Source: Pirellula sp. | GTDB lineage: Bacteria; Planctomycetota; Planctomycetia; Pirellulales; PNKZ01 | NCBI GenBank assembly: GCA_013822735.1 | Contig: PNKZ01000008.1 | Location: forward strand, 62,001 to 126,000 | DNA: 64,000 nucleotides | Reading direction: 5' to 3' | In this document: piece after piece, positions 15,002-58,945 of the stretch | Layout: every line of letters begins with the position of its first letter | Position numbering within the stretch: the first letter of the stretch is position 1 | The notes under the pieces: generated by a model | The model's input: only the letters and a program-made list of their open reading frames with translations | What the model was told of the DNA's origin: nothing | Databases searched by the model: none | Translations under genes and position numbers: made by a program

Positions 15002-15003
15002 CG

Positions 15004-16812: not shown

Positions 16813-16813
16813 A

Positions 16814-18631: not shown

Positions 18632-18668
18632 TTGGGGCTCCTCCGTGGCGTAGATTCTTGTTTCCGAT

Positions 18669-23052: not shown

Positions 23053-23084
23053 GCGGGTGAAGGTGATGCTTCATCTCAATCGTG

Positions 23085-23115
23085 ACGCCCGACGGGTTCG
23101 GTCCCTGTCGGGCGT
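23085..23115 (-). promoter_or_regulatory. Hairpin between HTH gene and replication gene
   Basis: ACGCCCGAC (23085-23093) pairs with GTCGGGCGT (23107-23115), a perfect 9-bp stem with a 13-nt loop and no T-run. It sits in the short gap before the replication gene and may be an attenuator or processing site. Confidence 0.4.
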
Positions 23116-23123
23116 TCGCGTTT

Positions 23124-23435
23124 CTACGTCACCGCATCCAATGCGGCGGACGGGGTTGTCGCGTTCGAAGCTACGGGCGCGCCCTCGCGTGATGCAAGGA
23201 ACTCCCGAATCGCTGCGACGCGCACGCGCCGTAGCCGGCCAATTGCCAAACTTGGGAGCTCGCCTGAGTCGACCAATCTTTTCGCGGTCGACGTCGACAC
23301 CGACATCAGGCGGGCGGCCTCGGCGATTTCCACGGCTTCCGGTGCGACTGGCGCCGGCGGGGCAGAGGATGCGGTGGCCGAGCGGGCGAACGGCAGGGCG
23401 TACCGCGGGCGTTGGAGGGAGGCGGCCTTATGCAC
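23124..23435 (-). CDS. Excisionase-type HTH DNA-binding protein
   Basis: 103 residues if the GTG at 23435, which overlaps the stop of the preceding 46-residue gene, is used; the frame is open to 23522. After an Ala/Pro-rich start, residues ~40-90 read VEIAEAARLMSVSTSTAKRL, VDSGELPSLAIGRLRRVRVA and IREFLASREG: the MerR-like winged helix of excisionase/HTH_17 proteins, whose second half is the typical GELPxxxxGRxRRVR. Such proteins bend DNA for excision or regulate early genes. Position directly upstream of the replication gene fits a control role. Confidence 0.72.
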   Translation of the reverse strand: MHKAASLQRPRYALPFARSATASSAPPAPVAPEAVEIAEAARLMSVSTSTAKRLVDSGELPSLAIGRLRRVRVAAIREFLASREGAPVASNATTPSAALDAVT

Positions 23436-23568
23436 TTGCCACCGCCTGTTCGTTGCGGCTGCTACCGCGCCGCTCTTTAGCCCGCTGCTCTGCCTCGCGA
23501 AGCTGTTCGAAAGCGCGGGCAAGGTTCCGATAAGCCGTCTTTTCGGCTTTCGTCAATTTGCGTTTCAT
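23428..23568 (-). CDS. Small basic helical protein
   Basis: 46 residues from the ATG at 23568, a single long helix (KLTKAEKTAYRNLARAFEQL, then REAEQRAKERRG) with many charges. Its stop overlaps the candidate GTG start of the excisionase-like gene, suggesting translational coupling. Too short for a family call. Confidence 0.45.
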   Translation of the reverse strand: MKRKLTKAEKTAYRNLARAFEQLREAEQRAKERRGSSRNEQAVASA

Positions 23569-23629
23569 CCTGCGTTCCTTCGATGGGGTCTGCGACGTCG
23601 AACATCGACGCCCTTGACCACTCAAAGGA

Positions 23630-23765
23630 TTCGGGGGATTTAGAACGCCAGTCCTCGTGGCGTGAACGCTGACGCCCAGCGAATTACGGCAAACAAAAAT
23701 CTTTGCCGATTATCTAATACCCCCGAATAAGTCTGAAAAAAGCCCCCGATTACACCCCCGAATAA
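23630..23765. promoter_or_regulatory. CCCCCGAATAA operator-like repeats
   Basis: CCCCCGAATAA at 23720-23730 and 23755-23765, CCCCCGATTA at 23743-23752, and the inverted form ATTCGGGGGAT at about 23629-23639. The four sites fill the gap upstream of the 46-residue/excisionase/replication genes, right after the regulator gene. They are good candidates for operators bound by the regulator at 23771 or the excisionase-like protein. Confidence 0.5.
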
Positions 23766-23770
23766 TGGAA

Positions 23771-24535
23771 CTAAATGGAGATGTTTTCTTGGCCACGGCT
23801 GTCGATCGGCATTCGGACAGATCGGGTTCGTTTGAAATTGGGAAGCATTCCTTTCATCTTCACGGACACCGCCTCCATTCTTTCGCGAAACGAGCTTTCA
23901 TCAATGCCGAGTTCCTTCGCTGCCAAGGTGCGATTGCCTCGATGTTTTATGTACATGCCAAGCGCTGTCTTTTGCTTTTCCGTCAGATCTTTAGGGCTTC
24001 TTGCCGGACGCCGCTTCGCAGTCGCGTTCTTATCGCCCTTTGATTTGACGGGCTGAGAGGGTTCACTCTCCTTGGGATGCTGGCAAACATTGTCGCCGAA
24101 CACGTAGGTGCCGATTAGCGCGCTGCACCTATTGAGTTCGTTGATCATCGAGCACAATGCGTCCAATTCAACGCGAAGCAAGAAACCAGGGCTTTCGTCC
24201 GCGGCAACCACTTCATTCGGAAGCAGTAAAACGTTTTTGTGGTAGGAGTCGAAGTGAATTTGTAATCTGTCGAATACTATGTCATGCAGCGCCCGAAGCC
24301 CATCATTGACTATGGGTTCGTGGAGCAACTCTGGTAGATCGGCGCCATCCAGAAGAAAGCGAAGCTTCTTCAGATCTCGCGACACAAGCTTTCTCGTCCG
24401 GAGAATATCGGCCCGCCCACCAAGATCGAGCTCAATTGCCTCTGCCTGGATGTGCTCCATCCGTTCGAGCAATTCGATCATTTGACCTAGATGCGCAGTG
24501 ATTGCGGGTAGGCTCAGAAATCGTCGACCTTCCAT
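23771..24535 (-). CDS. Putative regulator with C-terminal FIS/sigma-like helix-turn-helix
   Basis: 254 residues from the ATG at 24535; the frame is open further upstream but that part is Arg/Ala-rich and lacks a start signal. The N-terminal ~170 residues are helical with no family recognised (ITAHLGQMIELLERMEHIQA, then LRALHDIVFDRLQIHFDSYH). A basic linker (KSKGDKNATAKRRPARSPKD) leads to a C-terminal HTH: LTEKQKTALGMYIKHRGNRT, LAAKELGIDESSFRERM. The helix-turn-helix resembles FIS or sigma-70 region 4, so DNA binding is likely. It is the most upstream gene of the leftward unit, followed by the operator-like repeats, so autoregulation is plausible. Confidence 0.62.
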   Translation of the reverse strand: MEGRRFLSLPAITAHLGQMIELLERMEHIQAEAIELDLGGRADILRTRKLVSRDLKKLRFLLDGADLPELLHEPIVNDGLRALHDIVFDRLQIHFDSYHKNVLLLPNEVVAADESPGFLLRVELDALCSMINELNRCSALIGTYVFGDNVCQHPKESEPSQPVKSKGDKNATAKRRPARSPKDLTEKQKTALGMYIKHRGNRTLAAKELGIDESSFRERMEAVSVKMKGMLPNFKRTRSVRMPIDSRGQENISI

Positions 24536-24846
24536 GATGTAACCCTTTGTGAAGACGGCCGCGGGCCTCGTCGCCGTGGGGGTTACTCCATGACGACGGG
24601 CTCGCGTGCGGAAGCCGGCCAAGGCTCCTACCGATGCGGGCATTCTAACAAACCGCCCCACACACCCGCGAGCCTATTGAGAATGCGCCCGGTTGCAGTA
24701 CGGGAACAAGACGGCGCGCGAAACGCCGGTAATTGCAGGGCGTGCGGTGTCAGCGGGTGACTGCTCGCGGGAGATTCTTGCGGCCTCCCGCGCAACGTGC
24801 TTCAATATTCACCGGGAATGTCATGCCCGAATAGCGAGCCACATTC
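24536..24846. other. Divergent control region of the element
   Basis: About 310 bp between the leftward regulator gene and the rightward cassette. Promoters for both directions must lie here, but no clear box pair or repeat is visible. Confidence 0.4.
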
Positions 24847-25074
24847 ATGACCAGCAATCCCGATTTCGACCGTCCCCTGACCGCCGACGAAGCCGACAAG
24901 ATCGTGCGCATGATGTCGGACGGCAAGATGCACGTGAAGGTATTTGGCGAGCAGATCATTCTTTGTTCGAGTGATCGCGACGAGGGGCATCGGCTATTCA
25001 CGTATGAACTGACGCGACGCGGATTGATGCGGGCGGTAGTCGAGTATTTTCCCGAGCTGCCGAAAGAGCGGTAG
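24847..25074 (+). CDS. Small cassette protein, unknown
   Basis: 75 residues. A compact alpha/beta pattern with no TM segment: LTADEADKIVRMMSDGKMHV, KVFGEQIILCSSDRDEGHRL, then FTYELTRRGLMRAVVEYFPE. No family recognised. The stop lies 7 bp before the next gene, so they are co-transcribed. It opens the rightward cassette of the element, where satellites and prophages usually keep accessory genes. Confidence 0.6.
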   Translation: MTSNPDFDRPLTADEADKIVRMMSDGKMHVKVFGEQIILCSSDRDEGHRLFTYELTRRGLMRAVVEYFPELPKER

Positions 25075-25081
25075 GCGCGCC

Positions 25082-25297
25082 ATGGCGTCCGAACTGATCA
25101 TCGTGCCGCGGCTCACTCCCGCGGATCCCGAGGGCAGAAATTTTGTGGTACGAGTGTCGGATTCGACGATCGCGCTGGCGAGTTACGGCATCAACTCGTT
25201 TAAGGTGATACAGCTAGCAAACGACTTCGGAGAGATTGTGGGCTGCTTAATAACGTGGCGGCCTCCACAGCAGGCAAGTGAGCCGGACCAATCTTGA
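25082..25297 (+). CDS. Small cassette protein, unknown
   Basis: 71 residues, mostly beta-like strands (ELIIVPRLTPADPEGRNFVV, STIALASYGINSFKVIQLAN, IVGCLITWRPP). No TM segment and no domain recognised. It follows the previous gene by 7 bp. A frame of about 33 codons follows at 25352 beneath a string shared with 29982, but it is too short to call. Confidence 0.55.
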   Translation: MASELIIVPRLTPADPEGRNFVVRVSDSTIALASYGINSFKVIQLANDFGEIVGCLITWRPPQQASEPDQS

Positions 25298-25501
25298 AGC
25301 GACGGCCCGGCGTTGGTCCGGCTTGAGGGGCGGTAGCGGTCGTCGATTCTCATGGGTGTAAAAACACGATGGCATTTTTCGCGCATTGCGAGCTTTTTTT
25401 GCGCAGTACAGAAACCGCACTCCGACAGGAGTCGCCGAATGATTAACCTCTGACTAACGTAGAGAAGCACACCCGCGTCTGCGCCAGCTTGGTGATCGAG
25501 C

Positions 25502-25708
25502 ATGAATAACCCAGCGCCTCCGCCCTGCCCGAAATGCGGAAGTCCGACCGTCACCCGCATTTTCCACGAACGCGATTACTTGCTGGAACGATTAAGTCCG
25601 TTGCCGCTTCAGGCGGCGTTTAGCCAAGCGTTCCAATGCAAATGCGGACTGGCGTACACGTACACGCTCAAGATTCCGCGCGACTCCGATTCGGGGAGTG
25701 CCAGGTAG
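25502..25708 (+). CDS. Small zinc-ribbon protein
   Basis: 68 residues. CPKCGSPTVTRI near the start and QCKCGLAYTYTL near residue 50 give a CxxC...CxC pattern typical of a small zinc ribbon. The centre is a short helix. Zinc ribbons bind nucleic acid or partners; the function here is unknown. It stands 204 bp after the previous cassette gene. Confidence 0.55.
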   Translation: MNNPAPPPCPKCGSPTVTRIFHERDYLLERLSPLPLQAAFSQAFQCKCGLAYTYTLKIPRDSDSGSAR

Positions 25709-25879
25709 CACATGAAAGCGCCTGGCTTAAATAGTTGCTCCTAGCTCATTGCGCTGGGCTAGGCAATTCGATGCCCCAAAATGTTGCGGGCTTGCGGGGT
25801 CGGTGGGCGACTTTGTTCGATTCGCGGTCGGACGGCCGGTAGACTATTCGCGACACATTTCATCGCATAAGGGCGACCA

Positions 25880-26125
25880 ATGACCGTATCTAAATTCATC
25901 AACACCGTCGGCCTCGCGTGCGACATTGCAGGAGCGTATCTAATTTGGAAGTACGGGCTTCCCGATGACGTTAGTCGCCATGGCCGCAACTACCTCGTCA
26001 CCGAGCAAGTAATGGAGGAGGAAATCGCGCGAGGGCGGAAGTATGATCGAATGTCAAACATCGGTTTCATTCTTCTAGCATTGGGCTTTGGATTGCAGTT
26101 GATAAGCAATTTCGTGAACGCCTAA
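25880..26125 (+). CDS. Small two-pass membrane protein
   Basis: 81 residues with hydrophobic helices at about 6-24 (INTVGLACDIAGAYLIWKYG) and 61-78 (IGFILLALGFGLQLISNFVN) joined by a charged loop rich in Arg and Glu (VTEQVMEEEIARGRKYDRMS). Both termini would face the same side of the membrane. It ends 3 bp before the next gene, so the two are probably an operon. No family recognised. Confidence 0.6.
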   Translation: MTVSKFINTVGLACDIAGAYLIWKYGLPDDVSRHGRNYLVTEQVMEEEIARGRKYDRMSNIGFILLALGFGLQLISNFVNA

Positions 26126-26128
26126 TCA

Positions 26129-26737
26129 ATGCGATCCCTCCTCCGCACTTCCGCGATCGCCTTCCCGTTCATGCTCGCGGTAGTGGCGTTGTCTTGGTGG
26201 TGGACAACACCGTTGACGACGTCTGCCGGGCTCGAGCTCGGCGCCGCGATCAATCTCACGTCTCACGCCTCCGAAGCGACTCCCCCGGATCTTCGCTTGT
26301 CGCTGCGTCCGCCGTTGGGCTGGAAGGTGGAAGAGCACGAGCACCCGCGCGCCGATATGGTGCTTACGATCTTGCCGCCAGATGGCCTAGTCTCGCGAAC
26401 GTCCATTTCGGTCGTCATCTCCCGTGAGCCCTCACTGCTCGCCGCACCGAAACCTATCATTCCGCCTGGGGCGACAGTTCATGCCAAGCGCGAGACAATG
26501 CTCGGCGGCCAGCCAGCGGCCTTCGTGGAGGCGTTATCGATCGCTCCGAACAAAAGCTATTCGCGAACGATGTCCTGGCAAGCGACTATCGACGGCCGAC
26601 ACTTCGCGTTTGCGGGAACGGTGGCAGGAACGCCTGCGGAGTCAGCCGACGTCGATCGCCGGTTCCAGAAGTACCGGGAGACGTTTGAAGCGGTGGCCGC
26701 ATCGGTGCGGGTTGAGCCGAAGAAACTAGCGGAGTGA
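26129..26737 (+). CDS. Membrane-anchored or exported protein, possibly PsbP/DcrB-like
   Basis: 202 residues. An N-terminal hydrophobic segment (FPFMLAVVALSWWWT, about 12-26) acts as signal or anchor. The remainder alternates strands and loops: LSLRPPLGWKVEEHEHPRAD, VLTILPPDGLVSRTSISVVI, LGGQPAAFVEALSI, SWQATIDGRHFAFAGTVAGT, and ends YRETFEAVAASVRVEPKK. This order (a 'bad-fit' strand, a GxPA segment, then a final helix ending in ASxRV) recalls the PsbP/DcrB fold, but I could not confirm it. It is coupled to the preceding two-pass membrane protein. Confidence 0.6.
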   Translation: MRSLLRTSAIAFPFMLAVVALSWWWTTPLTTSAGLELGAAINLTSHASEATPPDLRLSLRPPLGWKVEEHEHPRADMVLTILPPDGLVSRTSISVVISREPSLLAAPKPIIPPGATVHAKRETMLGGQPAAFVEALSIAPNKSYSRTMSWQATIDGRHFAFAGTVAGTPAESADVDRRFQKYRETFEAVAASVRVEPKKLAE

Positions 26738-26788
26738 CAGTAGGCCGAATTGACTCCATTTTTCCCCAAGCACAACGTGAGCAACACC

Positions 26789-27343
26789 ATGACTGGTATT
26801 CAAGTGTTTTTTGCAGCAGTCGGGCTCATCACTCCGTTCGTATCGGTGATGGCTGCCCATCAAGTTGCGCAGGCACGGGAGCGGAAGCAACAACTTCTGA
26901 ACCTATTGGTGAAGACAAGCCAAGACATACGCGAGTACGTCGTAAATTCGACGGACTTGAAGGTGTGTCAGCGAGCCAACTCGCTGGCTTATGATCAGAT
27001 GAATGCCAGTAGTTCCATGACGCCTGACACTATAAAAAGCCGGATAGAAAGGTACGGAAAAACGCTGGCTGATTTACAGACGAAAATGGTGGTGTTCGGA
27101 AACGCCCACGCGAAGCTAATGGGAGATAAGCTCGCATTAGATCTATTATTGGGTGGCCGCGCTGCCCCCATTCAATCAAAGATCCGAGACTTGGTCAGCA
27201 TTGGCGATACCGCGGAGTCACACGTGAGCGACCTTCCGTCTATCCACTCCAAGATGTCCGAAATGGTGGACATGGTTGACAACGAGATAACAGAACTGTG
27301 GAAAAGCATTCGTGGCTTTAATGCGGTTGATTGGTCCGAGTGA
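26789..27343 (+). CDS. Coiled-coil protein with N-terminal membrane anchor
   Basis: 184 residues from the ATG at 26789; an earlier start at 26750 is possible. N-terminal TM helix (IQVFFAAVGLITPFVSVMAA, 4-23), then a long helical region (QARERKQQLLNLLVKTSQDI, IERYGKTLADLQTKMVVFGN, KIRDLVSIGDTAESHV) to the end. The local base composition is richer in A+T than the neighbouring genes. Function unknown. It ends the rightward cassette and faces the protease-like gene convergently. Confidence 0.6.
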   Translation: MTGIQVFFAAVGLITPFVSVMAAHQVAQARERKQQLLNLLVKTSQDIREYVVNSTDLKVCQRANSLAYDQMNASSSMTPDTIKSRIERYGKTLADLQTKMVVFGNAHAKLMGDKLALDLLLGGRAAPIQSKIRDLVSIGDTAESHVSDLPSIHSKMSEMVDMVDNEITELWKSIRGFNAVDWSE

Positions 27344-27359
27344 GCGAATTCCGCGCATG

Positions 27360-27402
27360 AAAAAGCCCGCCGCCGGCCCCCGCGTAGAAGCCGACGACGG
27401 GC
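27360..27402 (-). terminator. Rho-independent terminator of the protease unit
   Basis: Read on the minus strand: a 13-bp stem with two G:U-type pairs (arms 27390-27402 and 27365-27377), a 12-nt loop, then UUUUU from the A-run at 27360-27364. It ends the leftward transcript that includes the protease-like gene. Confidence 0.7.
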
Positions 27403-27496
27403 GAACCGGACAACGAGCCCGGGTTGTGTTATAGGCGGGCGCTATCGACCGCCACCGCCGTGCGCGTCCCTGCACACGACGGCGGCAAATGGTTGG

Positions 27497-28267
27497 TTAG
27501 GTGCGGATGGACTTAGCGAACGCCTGCGCATCCGTGGGCTTCGCGGTTTGCTCGGCCGACTCCCGCAAGCGCTTCTCACTCCGCCGTTGACGGTCTTCCG
27601 GCGAGTACGGCGCCACCTCGCGAAACGTGCCGACGAATTGCCGAGTGTCTACCGCTGGGCCGCTGGTTACGGACTCGGCAAACGACATCATCGAGTAACG
27701 CCCGACGGCCATGGATGCGGTGATGACGTCCGCGAGCGCTGACTCCCGCAACTCCGTGGACTCCGAGAAACTCCGATTCGTCGCCGGGTTGGCGACGATG
27801 TCGATCGACTTGACGACCGTGATCGTCTCCACGACTCGGCGCCCGTTACGCAAGGGCCCGTCGCCGTAGTGGTCGGGTGAAAATCCGACCTTCGAAGTTC
27901 CGTTTTCAACATCGAAAAGCACCTGCTTCGCGCGGGGATGGTCCGGGTTGTATTTGACGTCGCCGATCAGCCCCGACGGAGTGAGTCGAACGTTGACGGC
28001 CTCGCCGAATCGGTCGCCGTAGGAACGTTCTGTGCCGGGCTTCACGTGGTCGAAGTAGACCGGCGCGCCTTCGTACATCGGCAAGGCCTTTTCCAAAGCC
28101 TGCTTGGTGTACGTTCTGCCGTTGGCCGATTCCATCCCCAAGAGCTTTACGCCGCGGATGACGTTGGCCGCTCGGTCGACTTTGGCACCGCCGTTGTTCG
28201 CGGCGGTGTATTCGAGGAATCGCTCACTTTTTGCGGGAATGCTTGCGGGAAAGGTGGCTGTTGCCAT
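27497..28267 (-). CDS. Prohead-protease-like protein
   Basis: 256 residues. Residues ~36-165 read like a prohead maturation protease: IRGVKLLGMESANGRTYTKQ, ALPMYEGAPVYFDHVKPGTE, YGDRFGEAVNVRLTPSGLIG, KVGFSPDHYGDGPLRNG and TITVVKSIDIVANPATNRSF. A conserved His (YFDHV) and Ser (KVGFSPDHYG) are candidate catalytic residues. These enzymes cleave scaffold and capsid proteins during head maturation. The C-terminal ~80 residues are Ser/Glu/Arg-rich. No major capsid gene follows in the expected position; the gene ends the unit. A satellite could use it on capsids of a helper phage, which is inference. Confidence 0.62.
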   Translation of the reverse strand: MATATFPASIPAKSERFLEYTAANNGGAKVDRAANVIRGVKLLGMESANGRTYTKQALEKALPMYEGAPVYFDHVKPGTERSYGDRFGEAVNVRLTPSGLIGDVKYNPDHPRAKQVLFDVENGTSKVGFSPDHYGDGPLRNGRRVVETITVVKSIDIVANPATNRSFSESTELRESALADVITASMAVGRYSMMSFAESVTSGPAVDTRQFVGTFREVAPYSPEDRQRRSEKRLRESAEQTAKPTDAQAFAKSIRT

Positions 28268-28327
28268 TGGGTTCTCTTTTCGTGTTGTGGGTAGTGGTCG
28301 TGTTTCGTGGGTTTGAAGGTTCGCTTG

Positions 28328-28861
28328 CTAAGTAATTGCGATGCGTGCTCCAAGACTGCTGGCGGGCCCGAAGCCGACGTCTGGCATCGTGATTGCCTCG
28401 GCCGCCGGCTCGACGGGATCTTCGGGAAATGCGATCTCAGGAGATCTCTGCAGAAACGACTGAGCGCGCAAAATATTGGAAAACTCTGCGCGTTGCTCGT
28501 TTTCAATGCGGATCAGTTCCGCTTGCTCCAAGTCCATTTTGCGGTTGAACTCCGCAATTTCAGCCAAGGCTTTTTCGTGACGGACTTTTAGCTCTGCTTT
28601 GCGACGTTCGAAGTCGGGCAAAGTCTCGACGATGGATTGGTTCTCGCGCCGAGATTGTTCCAAGGCGACGTGATTCTCAAACTGTTCAAACGTTACGCCC
28701 GCGGCTTCGATCGTTGCCAAAACGTCATCCGGCTCGACTTCGTTTCCGACGATGGTGTCGTTGACCAATTTCAGATACGCGGCTCGACGTTCGTTTCGCT
28801 CCGATGCCTGAATGGCCCGGGCTTCCTCAATCTTGGCGCGGGCGGCTTCTACGTTTCCCAT
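28328..28861 (-). CDS. Helical protein upstream of the protease, scaffold-like
   Basis: 177 residues from the ATG at 28861. Almost entirely helical and charged: NVEAARAKIEEARAIQASER, FEQFENHVALEQSRREN, FERRKAELKVRHEKALAEIA, EFNRKMDLEQAELIRIENEQ, with a Pro-rich tail (FPEDPVEPAAEAITMPDVGF). The composition and the place next to a prohead-protease-like gene fit an internal scaffolding protein. This rests on context and amino-acid character only. Confidence 0.55.
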   Translation of the reverse strand: MGNVEAARAKIEEARAIQASERNERRAAYLKLVNDTIVGNEVEPDDVLATIEAAGVTFEQFENHVALEQSRRENQSIVETLPDFERRKAELKVRHEKALAEIAEFNRKMDLEQAELIRIENEQRAEFSNILRAQSFLQRSPEIAFPEDPVEPAAEAITMPDVGFGPASSLGARIAIT

Positions 28862-28922
28862 ATGTTCGGTCCTTTGCTTGCGGTGGTGGATGGTTCGATC
28901 TTCTCTCAAGGTTAGAGGCGGC

Positions 28923-29111
28923 CTATTTCAATCGCTTCACAATCCGGCCCGGCGCTTTTGGCCCGGGCCATTGCTTGGTCGAATCGCAGAAAATTGCCCA
29001 CGCTTCGTTTTCGTCGGCTGCGTAAACGGTGGAGGTTTGACCGTTAAACGTGACTTGAAATCGCGCTCGTTGGGCCTGATCTTCGTTGCTGTGAATTGTT
29101 ACCGTCTTCAT
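28923..29111 (-). CDS. Small element protein, unknown
   Basis: 62 residues, a compact beta/alpha pattern (VTIHSNEDQAQRARFQVTFN, STVYAADENEAWAIFCDST) with a basic end (GRIVKRLK). Its ATG overlaps the stop of the preceding gene (ATGA), so the two are translationally coupled. No family recognised. Confidence 0.6.
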   Translation of the reverse strand: MKTVTIHSNEDQAQRARFQVTFNGQTSTVYAADENEAWAIFCDSTKQWPGPKAPGRIVKRLK

Positions 29112-38651: not shown

Positions 38652-41600
38652 CTACTTCGCAACGGCCGGCGCGCTTTCGCGCTTCGCCGCCAACATGGCG
38701 CCAATCTTCTTCAACCACGCTTCGTCGGGCAAGCTGTAGGGTCGGAATTTTTCCAACCGTCCTTGTTCTTCGCTATAGAGCAAGGCCCGATTCGGTCCGA
38801 GCCGACTCGCCAACGGAGAGTCGATCAAGTTGCTCGAGTCGTTCTGGCTCATCTGGAAGAGAATGCGCACCTCGAACTCGCGCATCGCCGAACGTTCGAA
38901 CGTGCGCTGGAAGTTATTCAGCGAGTCACTCCAAATGATCACATGAATGCCGAGTGCCGGCCCCTCGCGGACAATGGTCAGCAGTTGCTTGCTCGGGTTG
39001 GCCTTCTCTTCCGTCCGGCTGAAGCTGAAATCATCTTCCGCCTTACGGAGGTCGCGGAAGCGTTGGAGATCGTGGACGACGAGATAAATCTCCGCGGTGC
39101 CGGCGGCGCCTTCGGTTTGACGACGTGCAAGTTCTTCGGCAATTTCCCCGACGAAACGTCCCGCTTCGCGTACGCCGCCGGCCTGGAACGGATGCGGAAA
39201 CGCCGCGGCCGCCCGTTGCCAAAAGCCGGCATGCATTGCGTCGGGGGGCGAGCCGTCGAGAACGTAGAATTTGCCGCCGCGCGCGGGATCGGCGGCGTGT
39301 TGCGCCGCCAGACTTACGAGCGCCACCGCTTCCATCGCGAGCGCAGATTCCGGCTGCTGCCCGAGGATCACCGTGTTGCTTCCACCTTGGCGGCGGAACG
39401 CCGTCGCCGTCGGGTCTTTGATGGCAATTGCCTCGCCGAGCCAGGCTTGCGGAGCGAGTACCACATCGGGCCATGAGGGAGCGGTCAGCACTTCCGTGAG
39501 CAAGTGATTCTTGTCGATATTCGCCGGCACGTTTCCTTCGAACACAATTTGCGGCGTCGCCGGGAGCACCTTGCGCTCGATCGCCATCGCACGAATCTTC
39601 TTGAGATAGTCTTCCCGCTTATCGTCAGTGAGCCAGACGACTTGAAACAGGTGATTCCCTTCCACGCGGCCGTTGGCATCGTTGTAAATGGCTTCGCCGG
39701 GGCGCGTGAGCAGCCGTGCCGCGGGATTGTCTTCACTGAGAATCAAATGCGAATCGGCCTCGCTACATTGCAACGCCACGCGAATGGCCATCTGCCCGAG
39801 CGTAGTGCGCGCCAAACTATAGGCGCCGCCAAGCGTTTGCGAACCGAGATGCACGTGAATGCCGAAGGCACGACCTTGGCGAACCAAGCGATCGAGCAAG
39901 AGAGACGTCTGCTGCGCGATCTTATCGTCTTCGACGAAGAACTCTTGGAATTCGTCGACCACCAGCAGGATGCGCGGCATCGGCAAGCCGGTGGCTTCAC
40001 GAAACGAATTGACGTCTTGCACGTTCAAGTCGCGGAACCGATCGCCGCGGGTCTTGAGTTCGACGTCGAGCCTCTCCAAGACGCTCAGACCGAATTCGCG
40101 CTCGCTCTCGATCGCGACAACCCGCGCGTGCGGCAATTCGTGCGTCGCATAGGTCTTGAATTCGACGCCTTTCTTGAAGTCGATGAGATATAGCTCGACT
40201 TCTTCCGGACTGTAATACAGCGCCAGATTGGTAATGAGCGCGTGCATCAACGTCGACTTGCCGGAGCCGGTCTTACCGGCGATCAGCACGTGCTGCGAGG
40301 TACCGTGGCCGAGCGTGAGATGCTGTCGCTTCGTGGCCCCCGCGCGTCCCAGCGGCACGTCAATCCCCGGGCCGCTCTGCTTGCTCCACCACTGGCCGTC
40401 GCGCGGGGCGATGAATTCAAACGGAACCTCGACGCGGCTCCCTTCCTTGGCGCGCTCGCCGACCTTCTGCAACAGCTGCGTGAATCGTTCTTGCGACGGC
40501 GGGGCATCGAGCATCAGCGGGCAATGTTCCCATTCCCCTTCTTTGCAGACGAATTGCTGATCTTTCCAAACCAGCTTGACGGCATTCTGCTCCAAATCGG
40601 AAAGGCTGAAGCCGTGCGGCAAGCGTTGTTTCATGTCGACGCTGATCAGCGAATACACGCCGCACCGCGCGCCGCTGGAGACAATCGACATCAGGTGCCG
40701 TGCGGCACTATCGGTGAAGTTAAACGGGAAATTGGCGACGACTAAGATGCGATACGGCTCGGCGACCTCGCCCGCGTGGCGATTGTAATCCTCGATCGTG
40801 TCGAACTCGTTACGTAGATACTTCTGAATCACGTTGGCCATGTGCGACGTGATGTCGGCCAAGCGCTGCTCGATAAATTGCGGCTCCGTCCAAATACGGC
40901 TGCCGACGAGCTTCTCATCGAAATCGGCCAAGTGCATGAAGCCGGCGAAGTTCTGGCCGAGCCCGACCGGATCGATGATCGTAAAGCGCACCTTGCCGGC
41001 CGGCAGCGATGTGAGAAACCGCATCATCACGGCCTGCAATGTTTGCACCGCCTCGGCGCGCCCCGCGCCGCTCGTTTTGATAAGCATCGAGCAACGCTCG
41101 GGAAACGAGAGCATAGCCGGCAATTCGAAATGGGCCGGATTGCGGTTGCCGAGCCGATCGTTCGGCACGGCGCCGTCGGGCAGGTGCTCCAGCGCGAGAT
41201 CGAAGCGGCCGAACTGCAGCACCGGCACCACGCTTTCGCCCGGCTGCCAATCGTCCCAACTCTCGTCCATCCAGCCGGGGAACAGCCGATCACACACGCC
41301 GAGAATCTCACCGGACTCTTTCCGCAGATGCTCAATACCGGTGTGCCACTCCGTGGAAATATGCCGCCACTCTTCATCCAATTGATCATGGGCATCGACT
41401 TTGGCCTGCTCGAGCTTCTCGTCGGCAGCGGCCAGATCGCGCTCAAGTTCGGCATCCAAGTCCTTTGCGCGCTGCGGGAAGCTCACCTGCGCGAGGCGGA
41501 CCTGCTCGGCATTGCGCTCACGCAACTGCTGGAGCTTCGGCGAATACTTCGCTTCCAACTCGCCGCGCGTGCGGTCGCGCACGGCGACCGCCGCTTGTTC

Positions 41601-42590
41601 GCGCGAGGTGTAAAGAGACTCGGCTCGGGCCAAATCGTCGCGATGGCGTTTTTTAATTTCGGCCTGCATCCGCCGGCTGCGCATGAGCTCTTGCAAGAGC
41701 CAACGCTTTCGTAGCTCCTCAATCTGCGCGAGCACACCGATAAATTCTTCCTTCAGCGCCTCCACCTGCCGGCCTGCGAATTTCCAGAGCCACACACAAA
41801 GACCGACGCCGAGCAGTATGCCGACCACCGCGCCGACGCCGACCGCAATGACGTTCCACCCGGTGGCAAACCCAATCGGCAATACCAGCAGCGCCGAGGC
41901 GAGTGCGACGATCCAAAACGGCGTGATCCCGCGAAAGAGCGACGGGACGAACCGCGTTCGCAAGGTGACGACGAGATTCTCGGCTTGTTGCGCAAGATCG
42001 GTCCATTGCTTGGCGGGGTCTTCCAACAACGGGCCCGGAGTCGGCTCTGCGTCGTCCGTCGGCGTCGCTTCGTCTTCCACGGCCGGTCGCGTCGCCGGTC
42101 GGCGGAGATCGACCAACCACTCGTAAAACACGCGCTCGATCTCGGCCACGCGCTCTTGCCGTTGCTTGACCTGCTTCTGGCGCTCCTTCAATTCGCGCCG
42201 CGGCAGATGCTTCTTGGCATCGAAGACCGTATTGCCTTCCCAGCGAGCCTGATCGTGATCGTGCTTTGCGGCCCGCATTTCCATCGCGAACGCGTCGGCC
42301 GTGTCACGCAGCGCCGTTTGATACTCCCGTTCGCATTGGTCGTACTCGGCGCGGAGGCGGCCGCTCAGCGTCACTCGGATCTCGTCGATTTCGCGATCCA
42401 GCGCCGCGCGGCTTTCGCTGAAGCGCGCTTGGGCTCGGTCGCGCTCTTCTTGATGGGCGACACGATCTTCCGAAAGCCGCTTTTGGTAGCGTGCTTCCGC
42501 CTCGGCGCCCGCCGCCTTGCGACGACGGACCAGTTGCTGCAGGTCCTGCAACACTTGGTTCTGTCGGTCGATGAGTCGTGGTTCGGTCAT
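38652..42590 (-). CDS. FtsK/SpoIIIE-type secretion ATPase, EccC-like
   Basis: 1312 residues from the ATG at 42590, which has GAGG before it; the frame is open to 42734. Order: coiled coil (about 1-185), two TM helices (about 235-285: IVALASALLVLPIGFATGWN, then VGAVVGILLGVGLCVWLW), a second coiled coil (about 290-450), then three ATPase-like domains. Domain 1 (about 490-690) has a degenerate Walker A, IKTSGAGRAEAV. Domain 2 (about 735-985) has Walker A AGKTGSGKSTLM (near 775) and Walker B ILLVVDEFQEF (near 873). Domain 3 (about 1065-1290) has ILGQQPESALAM and LVVHDLQRF, again degenerate. EccC of ESX secretion also has three. Neighbouring WXG100-like genes support a secretion role. Confidence 0.85.
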   Translation of the reverse strand: MTEPRLIDRQNQVLQDLQQLVRRRKAAGAEAEARYQKRLSEDRVAHQEERDRAQARFSESRAALDREIDEIRVTLSGRLRAEYDQCEREYQTALRDTADAFAMEMRAAKHDHDQARWEGNTVFDAKKHLPRRELKERQKQVKQRQERVAEIERVFYEWLVDLRRPATRPAVEDEATPTDDAEPTPGPLLEDPAKQWTDLAQQAENLVVTLRTRFVPSLFRGITPFWIVALASALLVLPIGFATGWNVIAVGVGAVVGILLGVGLCVWLWKFAGRQVEALKEEFIGVLAQIEELRKRWLLQELMRSRRMQAEIKKRHRDDLARAESLYTSREQAAVAVRDRTRGELEAKYSPKLQQLRERNAEQVRLAQVSFPQRAKDLDAELERDLAAADEKLEQAKVDAHDQLDEEWRHISTEWHTGIEHLRKESGEILGVCDRLFPGWMDESWDDWQPGESVVPVLQFGRFDLALEHLPDGAVPNDRLGNRNPAHFELPAMLSFPERCSMLIKTSGAGRAEAVQTLQAVMMRFLTSLPAGKVRFTIIDPVGLGQNFAGFMHLADFDEKLVGSRIWTEPQFIEQRLADITSHMANVIQKYLRNEFDTIEDYNRHAGEVAEPYRILVVANFPFNFTDSAARHLMSIVSSGARCGVYSLISVDMKQRLPHGFSLSDLEQNAVKLVWKDQQFVCKEGEWEHCPLMLDAPPSQERFTQLLQKVGERAKEGSRVEVPFEFIAPRDGQWWSKQSGPGIDVPLGRAGATKRQHLTLGHGTSQHVLIAGKTGSGKSTLMHALITNLALYYSPEEVELYLIDFKKGVEFKTYATHELPHARVVAIESEREFGLSVLERLDVELKTRGDRFRDLNVQDVNSFREATGLPMPRILLVVDEFQEFFVEDDKIAQQTSLLLDRLVRQGRAFGIHVHLGSQTLGGAYSLARTTLGQMAIRVALQCSEADSHLILSEDNPAARLLTRPGEAIYNDANGRVEGNHLFQVVWLTDDKREDYLKKIRAMAIERKVLPATPQIVFEGNVPANIDKNHLLTEVLTAPSWPDVVLAPQAWLGEAIAIKDPTATAFRRQGGSNTVILGQQPESALAMEAVALVSLAAQHAADPARGGKFYVLDGSPPDAMHAGFWQRAAAAFPHPFQAGGVREAGRFVGEIAEELARRQTEGAAGTAEIYLVVHDLQRFRDLRKAEDDFSFSRTEEKANPSKQLLTIVREGPALGIHVIIWSDSLNNFQRTFERSAMREFEVRILFQMSQNDSSNLIDSPLASRLGPNRALLYSEEQGRLEKFRPYSLPDEAWLKKIGAMLAAKRESAPAVAK

Positions 42591-42782
42591 TCCGGCCTCG
42601 GAAGGTTTCGTGATGCGGCGGGCGTCGGCGGCAGCGAGCGTGCCGTAGATGAAACGTCGCTCATGCAGCCAAAGTTTCGCGAACTGCGGAAATACCTCGA
42701 TCTGCGTGCTGCCGAAGGTCTGCTCGGCATCCATCGGCTTATAACATTACTATCTCGCGACGGCGTCAGCCCCGTGCGGGCA

Positions 42783-43016
42783 TTATTCGCTTTCGGGTGA
42801 GCACGCGTCGTAGGCCTTCATGAGCACCAGAGCCAAGCGATCCATGGCCTTGAGCGCCGTTTGCGTGGGCCCCTCGAGCGGTTCGATATGTGTTTCGAAG
42901 AACCGATTCGAAACGTCGTCGTTCCAGATCTGCCCCGCCTCTTCCCAGCGTTGGTGAAGATCTTGGAACGCGTGTTTCAAACCACCGACGATCGGTGAGA
43001 GGTCTCCTTGTTTCAT
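42783..43016 (-). CDS. 77-residue helical protein, type VII cluster
   Basis: 77 residues; the ATG overlaps the stop of the upstream gene (ATGA). Predicted helix-turn-helix hairpin: VGGLKHAFQDLHQRWEEAGQ, IWNDDVSNRFFETHIEPLEG, LKAMDRLALVLMKAYDA. The W...WND..S..F pattern at the centre resembles the turn region of WXG100 proteins, so it may be a second small substrate or a partner. The ATPase gene follows after a 192-bp gap with no obvious gene or hairpin. Confidence 0.7.
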   Translation of the reverse strand: MKQGDLSPIVGGLKHAFQDLHQRWEEAGQIWNDDVSNRFFETHIEPLEGPTQTALKAMDRLALVLMKAYDACSPESE

Positions 43017-43645
43017 TCCGTTCCTTCCGTGTCTTGCGGTGCGGGTTTCGCAAACTCCTCGAATACTGCGGGAGGCGCGACTACTGCAGGCTTCGCGGCG
43101 GGCGTCGACGACGCAGCACCGGACGCCATCCCGCTCGACACGCCTGACGATGGTCCGCCGGGAGTCGCAATGGCGAGATACGACTCCAGCGTTTCGACCA
43201 TCCGGTCCAGCGCGCCAAGCGCCCTCGGTACTCCGGAATCCAACACATTGGCCAGTTGTTGCGACGGGCCGCGGTACTCGCTCACCTCCTGCTCCACGGT
43301 GAGATACCACTGCTTGACATCTTTCAATTTTGCTTCCGCGTGCTCCAGTTTCGCTTGCGCGCGACGTACCATCAAAATCTCTTCGGAATCCGCGGCGACG
43401 TTCCCGAAAGTCGCGGTGATTCGTTTGCGGTGCAGAGCGGTCTTCGCCTCGTTGAGTTTTTCTTCGCGGCGACGAATCTCTCCCTTCCAAAACCCGACTT
43501 GGTCTTTCTCCAGCCAATCGAGCATTCGGCGGATTTCGAGATCGACGGCGATGATTGCATTGCGGCCGGAGTCGCCGAACTTGGCGTACGCCGAGCGAAC
43601 GTCTTGAAAAACGTCGAGCGACCCGACGCGTGCTTGGGAATCCAT
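43013..43645 (-). CDS. Coiled-coil protein of the type VII cluster
   Basis: 210 residues starting 9 bp after the WXG100-like gene. Residues 1-140 are helical (VRSAYAKFGDSGRNAIIAVD, VGFWKGEIRRREEKLNEAKT, VRRAQAKLEHAEAKLKDVKQ, WYLTVEQEVSEYRGPSQQLA), and residues ~165-210 are a Pro/Ala/Ser-rich tail. It has no TM helix. The fold resembles long helical hairpin substrates or chaperones such as LXG or PE/PPE-like helical proteins in layout only. Tightly packed between two small helical proteins, so it is part of one operon. Confidence 0.75.
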   Translation of the reverse strand: MDSQARVGSLDVFQDVRSAYAKFGDSGRNAIIAVDLEIRRMLDWLEKDQVGFWKGEIRRREEKLNEAKTALHRKRITATFGNVAADSEEILMVRRAQAKLEHAEAKLKDVKQWYLTVEQEVSEYRGPSQQLANVLDSGVPRALGALDRMVETLESYLAIATPGGPSSGVSSGMASGAASSTPAAKPAVVAPPAVFEEFAKPAPQDTEGTE

Positions 43646-43654
43646 ACCCGGGCT

Positions 43655-43927
43655 CTAGCGTTGTTGCAGATATTCTTCGACGCGTTCGGCCTTCCGCAGC
43701 AGAAACGGCACATGCTGGCTCGACGCTTCGAGAAAGCGCCCGACCACTTGCATCGTCTGCTCAAACTCTTGCATGAACTTCTCATGCTCTTGATCACGCC
43801 ACGTTTGCCCGAGGCTTCCCATTTGGGCGCGCAGCAAGGTCGATTGCGATTGGAGTTCGCTGCAAAACACCTTGAGATTGTTGGCAAACCGGCGTAGATC
43901 GGCCGGATTGACGATGGCTTGCGACAT
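43655..43927 (-). CDS. WXG100-like protein
   Basis: 90 residues from the ATG at 43927: two helices joined by a turn with GSLGQTWRDQEHEKFMQEFE, where W43 sits in the WxG/WxD position and the following F is at the conserved spacing. The first helix (PADLRRFANNLKVFCSELQS) and last (FLLRKAERVEEYLQQR) complete the helical hairpin. Length and pattern match type VII secretion substrates of the ESAT-6/WXG100 superfamily. It is the first gene of the cluster leading to the ATPase. The usual YxxxD/E export signal is weak at the C-terminus (RVEEYLQQR). Confidence 0.78.
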   Translation of the reverse strand: MSQAIVNPADLRRFANNLKVFCSELQSQSTLLRAQMGSLGQTWRDQEHEKFMQEFEQTMQVVGRFLEASSQHVPFLLRKAERVEEYLQQR

Positions 43928-54797: not shown

Positions 54798-56441
54798 ATG
54801 GCGATCGTCCAGGAAGGGTCTTCTCCAGAAATGACCTCGGTAACTCCCGACGTCACGGAAGCACCTCGCAGCAGACTACCGACCTTTGGCGACAGCATCG
54901 TTGCCGATATCACGGCCGGTTTTCTCGTCTTTCTGATCGCCTTGCCGTTGTGCTTGGGGATCGCTTCCGCCAGCGGTTTTCCCCCGGTGGCCGGCATCAT
55001 CACGGCCATCGTCGGCGGTTTGCTGGCGGGCTTTTTCAGCAACTCCGAACTGACGATCAAAGGCCCCGCCGCAGGCATGATTGCCATTGTCGTCGGCGCC
55101 ATGGGCGACTTCGGCTATGTCCCGCTCACGCCCGGTCTCCAATCGGACCAGGTGGCGGCCATCACTGCCGGAAACCTCCAAGCGTATCAGTATGTCCTGG
55201 CCATCGCCGTCGCCGCCGGCGTGATTCAAATCCTGTTCGGAATGTTCAAGGCCGGCGTGCTCGGTGAATTCTTTCCATTGGCTCCGGTGCATGGTCTCCT
55301 CGCCTCCATCGGGTTGATCATCATCGCCAAACAGTTTCCGCTCGTGCTCGGTGCTCCGGCGCCCAAGGGCGGCCCGCTTGCATGCTACGCACAAATTCCC
55401 GCTGCGTTTGCCGGCATCAATGCGAGCGTCGCCACGGTCGGTCTGATTAGCTTGGCGATCATGTTTCTCTACCCCTATGCAAAGGCGCGAATCAAAGCCC
55501 TCGGCAAGATTCCGGCGCAGCTCATCGTCTTGATTGTGGCGATTCCTCTCGGACAGGCGCTGCATCTAAACGAGAAGCAACTGATTAGCCTGCCGGATCG
55601 GATCCAAGACGTTTTCGCATTCCCCGACTATTCCCGGATCGTCAGCTCCACGGCGCTCAAGTGGATCATCATGTTCTCGCTGGTCGGAACGCTGGAATCG
55701 ATGCTCTCTGCCAAGGCAATCGACCTACTCGACCCTTGGAAGCGTAAGACCAGCATGAATCGCGACGTGCTCGGCGTGGGCGTGGCGAATACCGTGGCGG
55801 CACTCATCGGCGGCCTGCCGATGATCTCCGAAATCTTGCGCAGCTCGGCGAATATTTCCAACGGCGCTCGCACGCGTGTTTCGAACACCGCGCACGGGCT
55901 CTTTCTTTTGCTGGCGCTGCTGTTTCTCGTTCCGCTCGTGAAGCTGATTCCGATCGCCGCGCTCGGCGCGATGCTCGTATTCGCCGGATTCCGGCTGGCC
56001 TCGCCCAAGGAATTCGTCCACATGTGGCGTTCCGGCAAGGGGCAATTTCTGGCGTTTATGCTCACGATCGGCGTGATCATGATCGCCGGCGATTTGTTGG
56101 AAGGGATCTTTGCCGGAGTCGCCGCCGAGTTGCTGTTGAACGTGTTTGCCGGAGCCTCGTTGGCGACGCTGTTCAAGCCTAACCTCGAGCTTCATTCGGA
56201 GCGAAATCGGGTTCACATGAAGGTCCACAGCGCGCTGACTTTCACGAATTGGATTCCGTTCCTGCGCACCTTCCGACGTGCCGACGACGGCGGGCGGAAA
56301 GACTTCGTAGTGGACCTGACGAACGCGCACCCCATCGATCGCACGGCCCGCGACAAGCTCGCGATGCTGCAGTCGGAATTTGCCGGCGAGGGTCGCGAAC
56401 TGGAATTGGTCGGCTTCACGGCCGCCGACCATCACGGCTAA
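54798..56441 (+). CDS. SulP-family anion transporter 1
   Basis: 547 residues with an AAGGA ribosome-binding site. About 10-12 TM helices. SulP signatures: FLVFLIALPLCLGIASASGF, PPVAGIITAIVGGLLAGFFS, TIKGPAAGMIAIVVGAMGDF and NTVAALIGGLPMISEILRSS, ANISNGARTRVSNTAHG. The last ~90 residues form a shortened STAS-like domain (VDLTNAHPIDRTARDKLAML). SulP proteins carry sulfate, bicarbonate or other anions; the substrate is not evident. It is convergent with a second SulP gene across a palindrome array. Confidence 0.9.
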   Translation: MAIVQEGSSPEMTSVTPDVTEAPRSRLPTFGDSIVADITAGFLVFLIALPLCLGIASASGFPPVAGIITAIVGGLLAGFFSNSELTIKGPAAGMIAIVVGAMGDFGYVPLTPGLQSDQVAAITAGNLQAYQYVLAIAVAAGVIQILFGMFKAGVLGEFFPLAPVHGLLASIGLIIIAKQFPLVLGAPAPKGGPLACYAQIPAAFAGINASVATVGLISLAIMFLYPYAKARIKALGKIPAQLIVLIVAIPLGQALHLNEKQLISLPDRIQDVFAFPDYSRIVSSTALKWIIMFSLVGTLESMLSAKAIDLLDPWKRKTSMNRDVLGVGVANTVAALIGGLPMISEILRSSANISNGARTRVSNTAHGLFLLLALLFLVPLVKLIPIAALGAMLVFAGFRLASPKEFVHMWRSGKGQFLAFMLTIGVIMIAGDLLEGIFAGVAAELLLNVFAGASLATLFKPNLELHSERNRVHMKVHSALTFTNWIPFLRTFRRADDGGRKDFVVDLTNAHPIDRTARDKLAMLQSEFAGEGRELELVGFTAADHHG

Positions 56442-56836: not shown

Positions 56837-58744
56837 TCACACCATACCGCACGTTTCGCGCAAGCGATTCCAATCGACGATCAACTCACCCCCTTGCGCT
56901 TCGTGTCGTTTGCTCCAATTGCAAAACAGCTCGTAACAGGCGTGATCGATCTCCGTCAATTCTTCGACGTGCACGTACAGGACGATGCCGCTAGGCACCT
57001 CTTCCAGCCGGTCGGCGAGCATCGGCAACTTGAGAAATACGGCTGCGCCGCGCATGCGCAAATCCGCGCCGCGTTCGTCGGGGCGTTTCTCATAGGAAAC
57101 GTCCAACTTGGCAAAGCGAAGCAAGAGCCGCAGCGATGAGACGATAATTCCCAAAACGACCCCGGACAGCAGATCGACGAATACGACCCCGACCACGGTC
57201 GCGACGTAAACTAAAAGCTCGCTGCGACCATACTTCGCCATCTCCTTCGCGACGCCGAAATTCATGAGCTTGTAGCCGGTAAGCACGAGAATCGCCGCGA
57301 GCGAGGCGGTCGGTATCAGTTGCAGGACGGGGGTCAAGAACGTGACGAACAAGAGCAACCATACGCCGTGCATCACGGTCGACCAACGGGTTCGCCCGCC
57401 GGCTTGAATGTTGGCGGCGCTACGCACAATCACGCCGGTCATCGGAAGCCCGCCGAGCCAACCGCAAAGTGCATTACCGATGCCTTGCGCAAATAGCTCC
57501 CGGTCGTATTGCGTACGGGCTCCGGAATGCATTTGGTCGACGGCGGCGGCGCAAAGCAACGTTTCCGCACTGGCGACCACGGCAATCGTGATTACCGCGG
57601 TTGCCAGCGCGAATGGGTCGAGTTCCGCCGCGACTTTAGGCGAGACGATTTGCAACTCGTTCCAAAAGTCGTGCGGCACGTCGACATACACGACGGGCAG
57701 CGCGAATAAGAAACAGAGGCCGACGGCCGCGATGATCGCAAACAATTGCGGCGGGACGCGCCGCAGCGGATTCGTCCGCAAGGAACCCCAAGCGAGAATC
57801 ACGCCGAGCGTCGCCAACGCGACCTTTCCGGCAAGATCGGGGCGGCGCAGACTATCGGCTAACTGCTCCAATTGATCGGCCGCCGCTCGAATCGTTTCGC
57901 GCGCTTTGTTCCAATCGGCGGCGCGCAATTGATCGCCTGCGGTGCTCGCCGAAACGATTGCATCGTCGAGCGTTTCCGAAAACGGCCGCTCTGCATCCGC
58001 CTGTTGGCCGAGCGGCGCCCACTCTCGTTGCTGAATGCGTTTGCCCAACTCTTCCAAAGCTCGCACGACGGCTTCCTGCCGCCCGACCAACACAACATCC
58101 GCGCGCGGCGGCTGTTTCTCCGGAGCGGCCTCTTCTTCGACCAACTGCGCAATCGCCGCTTGCTCCGCCGACAGACGTAGCGACTCTTCAAATACGGCGG
58201 CCTGAAAACGCCGTTCCTCTTGGTCGCCCGCCGGCGGAAATGCCAAGCCTTTGGCGAGCGTGTACGGAATCGCTAACAGGTTTTCCCGGCCGCTCTTTTT
58301 CGACGGCTCATCGAACATTACGTGGAATTGACTCGCGAAGATCAGAATGCCGATGCCGGAAAGCATTCCTTGCACCACGGCGGGAGACACGGCCCGAAAC
58401 CATCGCCCGAGATGCAATGTGCCGGCGACCATTTGGAAGATGCCCGCGCCCAGAATCGCGAGACCAAGCATCTCATAGCCATGACGTTCGACGATGGCGA
58501 AGACAATGACCGTCAGTCCGGCGGCGGGGCCGCTGACCTGAAGGGAAGCGCCTCCCAACAACCCGACGACGATGCCGCCGACAATCCCCGTGATGAGACC
58601 GGATGCGACCGGCATCCCGGACGCGACGGCAATTCCCATGCACAACGGTAGCGCAACGAGAAACACGACGAAAGACGGCAGCAAGTCGTGCCGGAAGTTC
58701 GTCCACTGCGACGGGTCGGCGGCAGATGGGCCGTCGGTCCTCAT
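56837..58744 (-). CDS. SulP-family anion transporter 2 with a large inserted domain
   Basis: 635 residues from the ATG at 58744. N-terminal SulP core: FLVALPLCMGIAVASGMPVA, LQVSGPAAGLTVIVFAIVER and VVQGMLSGIGILIFASQFHV. Residues ~168-302 are a hydrophilic, helical insertion (EEESLRLSAEQAAIAQLVEE-like, FSETLDDAIVSASTAGDQLR, ETIRAAADQLEQLADSLRRP) between TM segments where relatives have a short loop. The TM core resumes with LATLGVILAWGS and the C-terminus is a STAS domain (VLYVHVEELTEIDHACYELF). The insertion may be a regulatory or binding module. The substrate is unknown. Confidence 0.88.
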   Translation of the reverse strand: MRTDGPSAADPSQWTNFRHDLLPSFVVFLVALPLCMGIAVASGMPVASGLITGIVGGIVVGLLGGASLQVSGPAAGLTVIVFAIVERHGYEMLGLAILGAGIFQMVAGTLHLGRWFRAVSPAVVQGMLSGIGILIFASQFHVMFDEPSKKSGRENLLAIPYTLAKGLAFPPAGDQEERRFQAAVFEESLRLSAEQAAIAQLVEEEAAPEKQPPRADVVLVGRQEAVVRALEELGKRIQQREWAPLGQQADAERPFSETLDDAIVSASTAGDQLRAADWNKARETIRAAADQLEQLADSLRRPDLAGKVALATLGVILAWGSLRTNPLRRVPPQLFAIIAAVGLCFLFALPVVYVDVPHDFWNELQIVSPKVAAELDPFALATAVITIAVVASAETLLCAAAVDQMHSGARTQYDRELFAQGIGNALCGWLGGLPMTGVIVRSAANIQAGGRTRWSTVMHGVWLLLFVTFLTPVLQLIPTASLAAILVLTGYKLMNFGVAKEMAKYGRSELLVYVATVVGVVFVDLLSGVVLGIIVSSLRLLLRFAKLDVSYEKRPDERGADLRMRGAAVFLKLPMLADRLEEVPSGIVLYVHVEELTEIDHACYELFCNWSKRHEAQGGELIVDWNRLRETCGMV

Positions 58745-58945
58745 GGAAATTCGCTCGGGAAGACTGCGAAACAATCAGGCCCGAAAGCGAGTGCAGGAAG
58801 CCGATTTGCTCGCCCGAACGTCTTCCGCGGCCGCAACATAACAATACTGCAATGAATGTTACAGTATCGTCATGTTCGTAGCCAGGGCGTACCTAGTCGA
58901 GTTCGGCCGCAAAGCGTCGCACATTGAATCGGCAATCGACCCGAA

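What the first reader, a model, noticed from the sequence alone, without database searches (positions are those of the whole stretch)
38652..43927. Compact type VII secretion-like cluster in a planctomycete
WXG100-like protein, coiled-coil protein and a second small helical protein in one overlapping operon lead to a 1312-residue FtsK/SpoIIIE ATPase with its own coiled coils and two TM helices. No EccB, EccD, EccE or mycosin-like gene is nearby, so a minimal system with an ATPase/channel fusion is possible.
Basis: partly seen in the sequence, partly recalled or inferred. Interest (0 to 1): 0.65.

Follow-up and report, generated by a model that had tools for sequence, protein, structure and literature searches.

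The report
Toxin-free type VII-like secretion cassette
A planctomycete, a bacterium with two membranes, carries four genes that look like the stripped-down core of the 'type VII' protein exporter known from tuberculosis and staph bacteria; the set is kept in one copy by most species of its class and has no toxin beside it, so it is probably a housekeeping exporter, though nobody has shown that it secretes anything.

Summary
Four minus-strand genes encode a WXG100 protein (43655-43927), a coiled-coil protein P2 (43013-43645), a small helical protein P3 (42783-43016) and a 1312-residue ATPase (38652-42590). P3 is itself WXG100-like. The ATPase has coiled coils, two TM helices and three tandem FtsK-fold domains; only the middle one keeps its Walker motifs. 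The closest solved structures to its model are T7SS EccC/EssC, ahead of FtsK.

Neither refutation condition is met. In 48 of 55 planctomycete loci the order WXG-P2-P3-ATPase is identical. Across 294 genomes of the phylum the WXG and ATPase genes co-occur almost perfectly (Fisher p 2e-43), even where they lie megabases apart. The ATPase is outside the clade of canonical FtsK.

The kind is not new: Zhang et al. 2012 noted 'solo WXG' genes with a three-domain ATPase, only the middle one active, in Planctomycetes and other Gram-negatives. New here are the fixed four-gene set, its single-copy and mostly vertical inheritance (WXG100 in 69% of sampled genomes of the class), and the absence of toxins, although a plasmid relative carries a nuclease toxin and immunity gene in the P2 position. 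'ATPase/channel fusion' is unsupported: EccC also has two TM helices. Secretion is inferred, not shown.

The parts
43655..43927 (-). WXG100-family protein, 90 aa, W-R-D motif, conserved C-terminus KAERVEEYLQQR
   Evidence: PF06013 E 1.2e-7 above cut-off; 90 aa ungapped in all 25 homologues, 52-98% identity; only WXG100 above cut-off in the genome
43013..43645 (-). P2: elongated two-helix hairpin (residues 9-79 and 87-159) with disordered C-terminal tail; proposed substrate, spacer or adaptor
   Evidence: AlphaFold2 with 69 homologues, pLDDT 91-99 in the helices; conserved next to WXG; one copy in the genome
42783..43016 (-). P3: 77-aa small helical protein with W-x-D motif; second WXG100-like subunit
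   Evidence: P3 profile finds 21 of 25 WXG proteins at E<0.01 against 0 of 1000 shuffled; 5 homologues hit Pfam WXG100 weakly, best E 2e-4
38652..42590 (-). EccC/EssC-like ATPase, 1312 aa: coiled coil, two TM helices (about 218-265), coiled coil, degenerate D1, active D2 (GKTGSGKS, VVDEF), degenerate D3. ORF is open to 42734.
   Evidence: FtsK_SpoIIIE E 1.2e-31; Walker motifs; TM segments; AF2 core pLDDT 90, best PDB match EccC 4nh0

Best explanation
A minimal type VII secretion-like export cassette of the planctomycete inner membrane, used for a conserved cellular role and not for toxin delivery. [quoted passage not shown] a WXG100 protein with a nearly invariant C-terminal helix; a second WXG100-like protein (P3); and a long helical hairpin with a disordered tail (P2). 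Inferred: the ATPase forms a ring in the inner membrane; the WXG100/P3 pair, by its C-terminal helix, docks on the degenerate D3 as EsxB docks on EccC; docking permits ATP turnover in D2; and the WXG100/P3/P2 complex, or P2 alone, is pushed out of the cytoplasm. P2 occupies the gene position that holds a toxin and its immunity gene in a plasmid relative, so P2 is probably the exported substrate, or the carrier of one, with no toxin attached.
For: Foldseek: the ATPase model's eight best PDB hits are all T7SS EccC/EssC (4nh0, E 2.4e-32, 959 alignment columns over the three-ATPase region); FtsK motors start at rank 9. NCBIfam: EssC 108 bits, EccCa 100, EccCb 91, DNA translocase FtsK 18. Canonical FtsK of the same genomes forms a separate supported clade, 100/99. 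Gene order WXG-P2-P3-ATPase in 48 of 55 loci with at least 2.6 kb upstream; no other gene family is conserved in the flanks. Phylum sample: WXG in 39 genomes, ATPase in 38, both in 37 besides the window's own, Fisher 2e-43; P2 in 36, 34 shared with the ATPase. Co-retention without linkage in complete genomes: G063 WXG at 2.50 Mb, P2 at 4.30, ATPase at 5.92; G144 0.71, 2.66, 0.23. Helicobacter plasmid relative: WXG-like, WHH nuclease, SUKH immunity, 77-aa gene, ATPase. Mostly vertical: ATPase and FtsK distances correlate, Mantel r 0.73, p 2e-4.
Against: No secretion data. No EccB, YukC or YukD homologue and no outer-membrane component seen, so how a substrate would cross two membranes is unknown. 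The WXG100 C-terminus has Y-x-x-x-R instead of the canonical YxxxD/E. P2 homology to the plasmid toxins is weak: Rhodococcus E 4e-4, Caballeronia and Helicobacter not detectable. The D2 tree does not place the family with EccC/EssC with confidence; it is only outside canonical FtsK. Two WXG-bearing genomes lack a detected ATPase (G307, G315; both incomplete).
Confidence: 0.72

Rival explanations
1. A polymorphic-toxin delivery or anti-toxin system whose toxin genes are scattered or lost: the cassette is the trafficking part of the plasmid-type conflict systems, and P2 is a disarmed effector or immunity carrier.
For: Plasmid relatives place a toxin (WHH/colicin-type nuclease) and a SUKH immunity gene between WXG and ATPase; five Phycisphaerales-type P2 proteins end in an Imm33-like domain (PF24719, E down to 1e-14).
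Against: No toxin or immunity family recurs in 54 flanks; one WXG100 and one P2 in the genome, so no orphan effectors of that type; single-copy, mostly vertical inheritance across a class is unlike conflict loci.
Confidence: 0.15
2. An intracellular or membrane scaffold in which the WXG100 proteins regulate an FtsK-type motor that does not export protein, for example one moving DNA or remodelling the envelope.
For: FtsK/HerA-type motor core; D2 scores against FtsK and EccC sequences are comparable; no other secretion parts found.
Against: No FtsK alpha/gamma or 4-TM domain hits; NCBIfam scores far better for EssC/EccC than for FtsK; whole three-domain architecture matches EccC; the genome has its own canonical FtsK.
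Confidence: 0.11
3. A mobile T7SS variant spread horizontally (the suggestion of Zhang et al. 2012). This concerns inheritance and could be true beside any of the functions above.
For: Distant relatives sit on plasmids of Rhodococcus, Deinococcus, Caballeronia and Helicobacter; patchy presence in some planctomycete families; flanking genes differ.
Against: In planctomycetes the ATPase tree recovers every sampled family with two or more members, distances follow canonical FtsK (Mantel r 0.73; 0.55 with one genome per family), no mobility genes recur in flanks, none found in viral contigs.
Confidence: 0.08

Closest known systems
[quoted passage not shown] 2012, PMC3482391, Table 1 footnote 6)
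   Same: Same taxa (planctomycetes named), solo WXG, three ATPase domains, only the middle one active: this is the same family in outline.
   Different: The footnote calls them mobile versions of T7SS; in planctomycetes they are mostly vertical, single-copy and come with two further conserved small genes (P2, P3), which the passages read do not mention.
T7SSa/T7SSb (ESX, Ess/Yuk)
   Same: WXG100 protein plus membrane ATPase with three tandem FtsK-fold domains; EccC/EssC are the nearest solved structures.
   Different: No EccB, YukC or YukD found genome-wide; coiled coils in place of FHA/DUF parts; only D2 intact (in EccC, D1 is the main active domain, from established knowledge); diderm host; no toxin or PE/PPE genes.
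T7SSc-T7SSj of Gram-positive bacteria (PMC11217815, 2024)
   Same: Variant systems built on WXG100 and ATPase plus subtype-specific parts; small WXG100-like partners.
   Different: Those have kinases, phosphatases, FHA, vWA or ubiquitin-like parts; none is conserved here. The Caballeronia plasmid relative (vWA, PP2C, kinase) resembles T7SSc in its accessory genes.
LXG effectors with Lap partners (T7SSb, reviewed in PMC10765036)
   Same: A helical targeting protein accompanied by two small WXG100-like proteins.
   Different: P2 has no toxin domain and no significant sequence match to LXG or Lap families (YwqH-like E 0.07 only).

Membership tests
Type VII secretion system | WXG100 family protein | tested here: met
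   PF06013 above cut-off; all 25 homologues match
Type VII secretion system | Membrane FtsK/SpoIIIE-type ATPase with EccC/EssC architecture (three tandem ATPase domains, two TM helices) | tested here: met
   AF2 core plus Foldseek, top hits EccC/EssC; TM segments; below the NCBIfam equivalog cut-offs for EccC/EssC, so not an orthologue in that sense
Type VII secretion system | Subtype parts EccB/EccD/EccE/MycP or EsaA/EssA/EssB/EsaB (define T7SSa and T7SSb) | tested here: not met
   PF05108, PF10140 and PF08817 absent from the genome at E<=1; the other parts were not searched genome-wide. It therefore belongs to neither T7SSa nor T7SSb
Type VII secretion system | C-terminal secretion signal YxxxD/E | tested here: not met
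   Conserved C-terminus is EEYLxQR, Y-x-x-x-R
Type VII secretion system | ATP-dependent secretion of the WXG100 protein | not testable with these tools
   needs an experiment
Solo WXG + three-domain ATPase (Zhang 2012) | Single WXG100 gene linked to a three-domain ATPase with only the middle domain active | tested here: met
   Walker A intact in D2 of all 61 aligned homologues, no GK[ST] seen at the D1 or D3 equivalents shown; one WXG100 in the genome
Solo WXG + three-domain ATPase (Zhang 2012) | Mobile | tested here: not met
   Mostly vertical in planctomycetes; plasmid relatives exist elsewhere
FtsK DNA translocase | Groups with canonical FtsK; FtsK alpha, gamma and 4-TM domains | tested here: not met
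   Separate clade; no FtsK gamma, alpha or 4-TM Pfam hits; canonical FtsK is another gene, on contig C24

The most novel reading that the evidence does not exclude
A housekeeping type VII secretion system in diderm bacteria: the smallest T7SS core known (motor, WXG100/P3 pair, P2), kept as a single copy by most Planctomycetia, exporting the long-hairpin protein P2 for a cell-envelope role and not for warfare or virulence; plasmid relatives would be the armed version of the same machine.
Probability: 0.45. Interest if true: 0.8.

Novelty: new variant of a known kind. Interest (0 to 1): 0.58.

Why it matters
T7SS is taught as a Gram-positive and mycobacterial machine; a 2023 review says WXG100 proteins with an FtsK-type partner in some Gram-negatives remain functionally unconfirmed (PMC10765036). 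A four-gene set, fixed across a large class of diderm bacteria that includes cultured species, makes that question testable. If it exports, it defines what the T7SS core needs, and shows that one ATP-hydrolysing domain, in the middle position, suffices. It also suggests that T7SS can be a conserved cellular system and not only a weapon.

Tried and rejected
Structure search with P2: no significant PDB match (best E 0.06, generic coiled coils). Profile comparison of WXG100 against P2: no significant relation. hhalign of WXG100 against P3 alone was inconclusive (24% probability); the single-pass HMM test with shuffled controls settled it. First iterative profile run mixed P3 and WXG through shadow ORFs and was discarded for trimmed sets. 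First distance correlation with FtsK gave r 0.12; two of the 'FtsK' rows were wrong-frame ORFs (mean identity 18-20%); without them r 0.73. Viral contigs: no relatives.

Full report
Anatomy. On the minus strand lie, in order of transcription, a WXG100 gene (43655-43927), P2 (43013-43645), P3 (42783-43016) and the ATPase (38652-42590, ORF open to 42734). The WXG100 protein passes the Pfam cut-off and is the only one in the genome that does. P3 has no Pfam hit itself, but a profile of its family finds 21 of 25 WXG100 proteins at E<0.01 and none of 1000 shuffled sequences; the reverse search finds 5 of 25 and none of 1000. Both share a W-x-D turn. P2 is predicted with high confidence as a hairpin of two helices of 71 and 73 residues followed by a disordered tail.

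ATPase. Two hydrophobic segments near residues 218-265 are conserved and are flanked by charged, helical, coiled-coil-like stretches (read from the sequence). The core model (pLDDT 90) contains three ATPase-like domains. Only D2 has Walker A and B motifs; all 61 aligned homologues keep GKS there, and the D1 and D3 equivalents that were printed lack it. Foldseek's eight best PDB matches are EccC or EssC, the first covering the whole three-ATPase region; FtsK motors come next. Family models agree: EssC and EccC about 91-108 bits, FtsK 18. In a D2 tree canonical FtsK, including the genome's own, is a separate well supported clade; the planctomycete family joins a Rhodococcus plasmid protein (89/88), and its relation to EccC/EssC is unresolved.

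Conservation. Among 40 relatives, most from the same order, about 28 carry the ATPase. Of the 27 loci compared, window included, 25 carry WXG100, P2 and P3 in the same order before the ATPase; one of the other two is cut short by its contig. Of 80 further planctomycete loci, 55 have enough upstream sequence and 48 of these show the full set in the same order; four lack all three nearby and three lack one or two. Of six genomes whose ATPase has no WXG gene beside it (one on a short contig), five hold the WXG gene elsewhere. In the phylum sample, 39 genomes have WXG, 38 the ATPase and 37 both besides the window's own (Fisher 2e-43); P2 follows (36 genomes, 34 with the ATPase). In single-contig genomes the genes may be millions of bases apart and still all be kept. 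This argues for joint function more strongly than synteny does. In the class, 136 of 198 genomes have a WXG100 above the Pfam cut-off, almost always exactly one; of 14 control genomes only Bacillus subtilis does.

Inheritance and surroundings. The ATPase tree recovers all sampled families with two or more members and its distances follow canonical FtsK. No other gene family recurs in the flanks; Ser/Thr kinases occur in 11 of 54 loci at scattered positions. No EccB, YukC or YukD homologue is in the genome.

Armed relatives. Plasmid relatives place other genes where P2 stands. A Helicobacter plasmid from a cat isolate has a WXG-like protein, a protein ending in a WHH/colicin-type nuclease, a SMI1/KNR4 immunity protein, a 77-aa gene and the ATPase. 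A Caballeronia plasmid has WXG100, a 436-aa and a 113-aa protein, a 76-aa gene and the ATPase, followed by CARF, vWA, PP2C and kinase genes. A Rhodococcus plasmid has the ATPase, a P2-like 314-aa protein with an extra C-terminal part (E 4e-4 in a search that included 3499 other ORFs), a 73-aa and an 87-aa WXG-like protein. In five Phycisphaerales-type loci P2 itself carries a C-terminal Imm33-like domain. I infer that the P2 position is the cargo position, and that in most planctomycetes it holds no toxin.

Known or new. Zhang et al. 2012 (PMC3482391) recorded solo WXG genes with a three-domain ATPase whose middle domain alone is active, in planctomycetes and other Gram-negatives, and called them mobile. 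A 2023 review (PMC10765036) says such pairs are unconfirmed as secretion systems. The 2024 survey of T7SS variants covers Gram-positives (PMC11217815). Within the open-access library searched, nothing describes the four-gene set, its near-core status in Planctomycetia or the P2 family; Sutcliffe 2011, a likely source, was not readable here. So this is a new variant of a known kind.

Limits. Export, complex formation and docking are inferred. Crossing of the outer membrane is unexplained. P2 homology to plasmid effectors is weak for Rhodococcus and undetectable for Caballeronia and Helicobacter.

Noticed in passing
window 13570-29000: A tRNA-Val (13570-13644) overlaps the end of a tyrosine-recombinase-like gene (13589-15001, -), followed by a primase/DnaB-like and a capsid-protease-like gene: looks like an integrated element. 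Judged by eye from ORFs.
   Followed up: no
L179 (Caballeronia sp. SBC2 plasmid pSBC2-5): A WXG100-ATPase cluster in a betaproteobacterium with vWA, PP2C, Ser/Thr kinase and a CARF (DUF1887) protein, the accessory set of Gram-positive T7SSc plus a CARF protein.
   Followed up: partly
L180 (Helicobacter sp. NHP19-012 plasmid): A WXG-like gene, WHH-nuclease toxin, SUKH immunity gene, 77-aa gene and three-domain ATPase in a campylobacterote: a candidate armed diderm T7SS.
   Followed up: partly
L103, L122, L127, L142, L154 (P2 genes): P2 proteins of Phycisphaerales type carry a C-terminal Imm33-like domain (PF24719), an immunity-type domain with no toxin gene seen nearby.
   Followed up: partly
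L212 (G457:C249): Tandem WXG100 genes of actinobacterial look in a planctomycete bin; probably a contaminant contig.
   Followed up: partly
G063, G144, G126, G175, G231: The WXG100, P2 and ATPase genes lie at separate places (different contigs or megabases apart) yet are all kept; how their expression is coordinated is open.
   Followed up: partly
L148 10761-12308; G115: A second, partial ATPase copy in the L148 locus and two ATPase genes in G115: occasional duplication.
   Followed up: no
window 54798-56441 and 56837-58774: Two SulP-like transporters on opposite strands close to each other, judged by eye from the ORFs.
   Followed up: no
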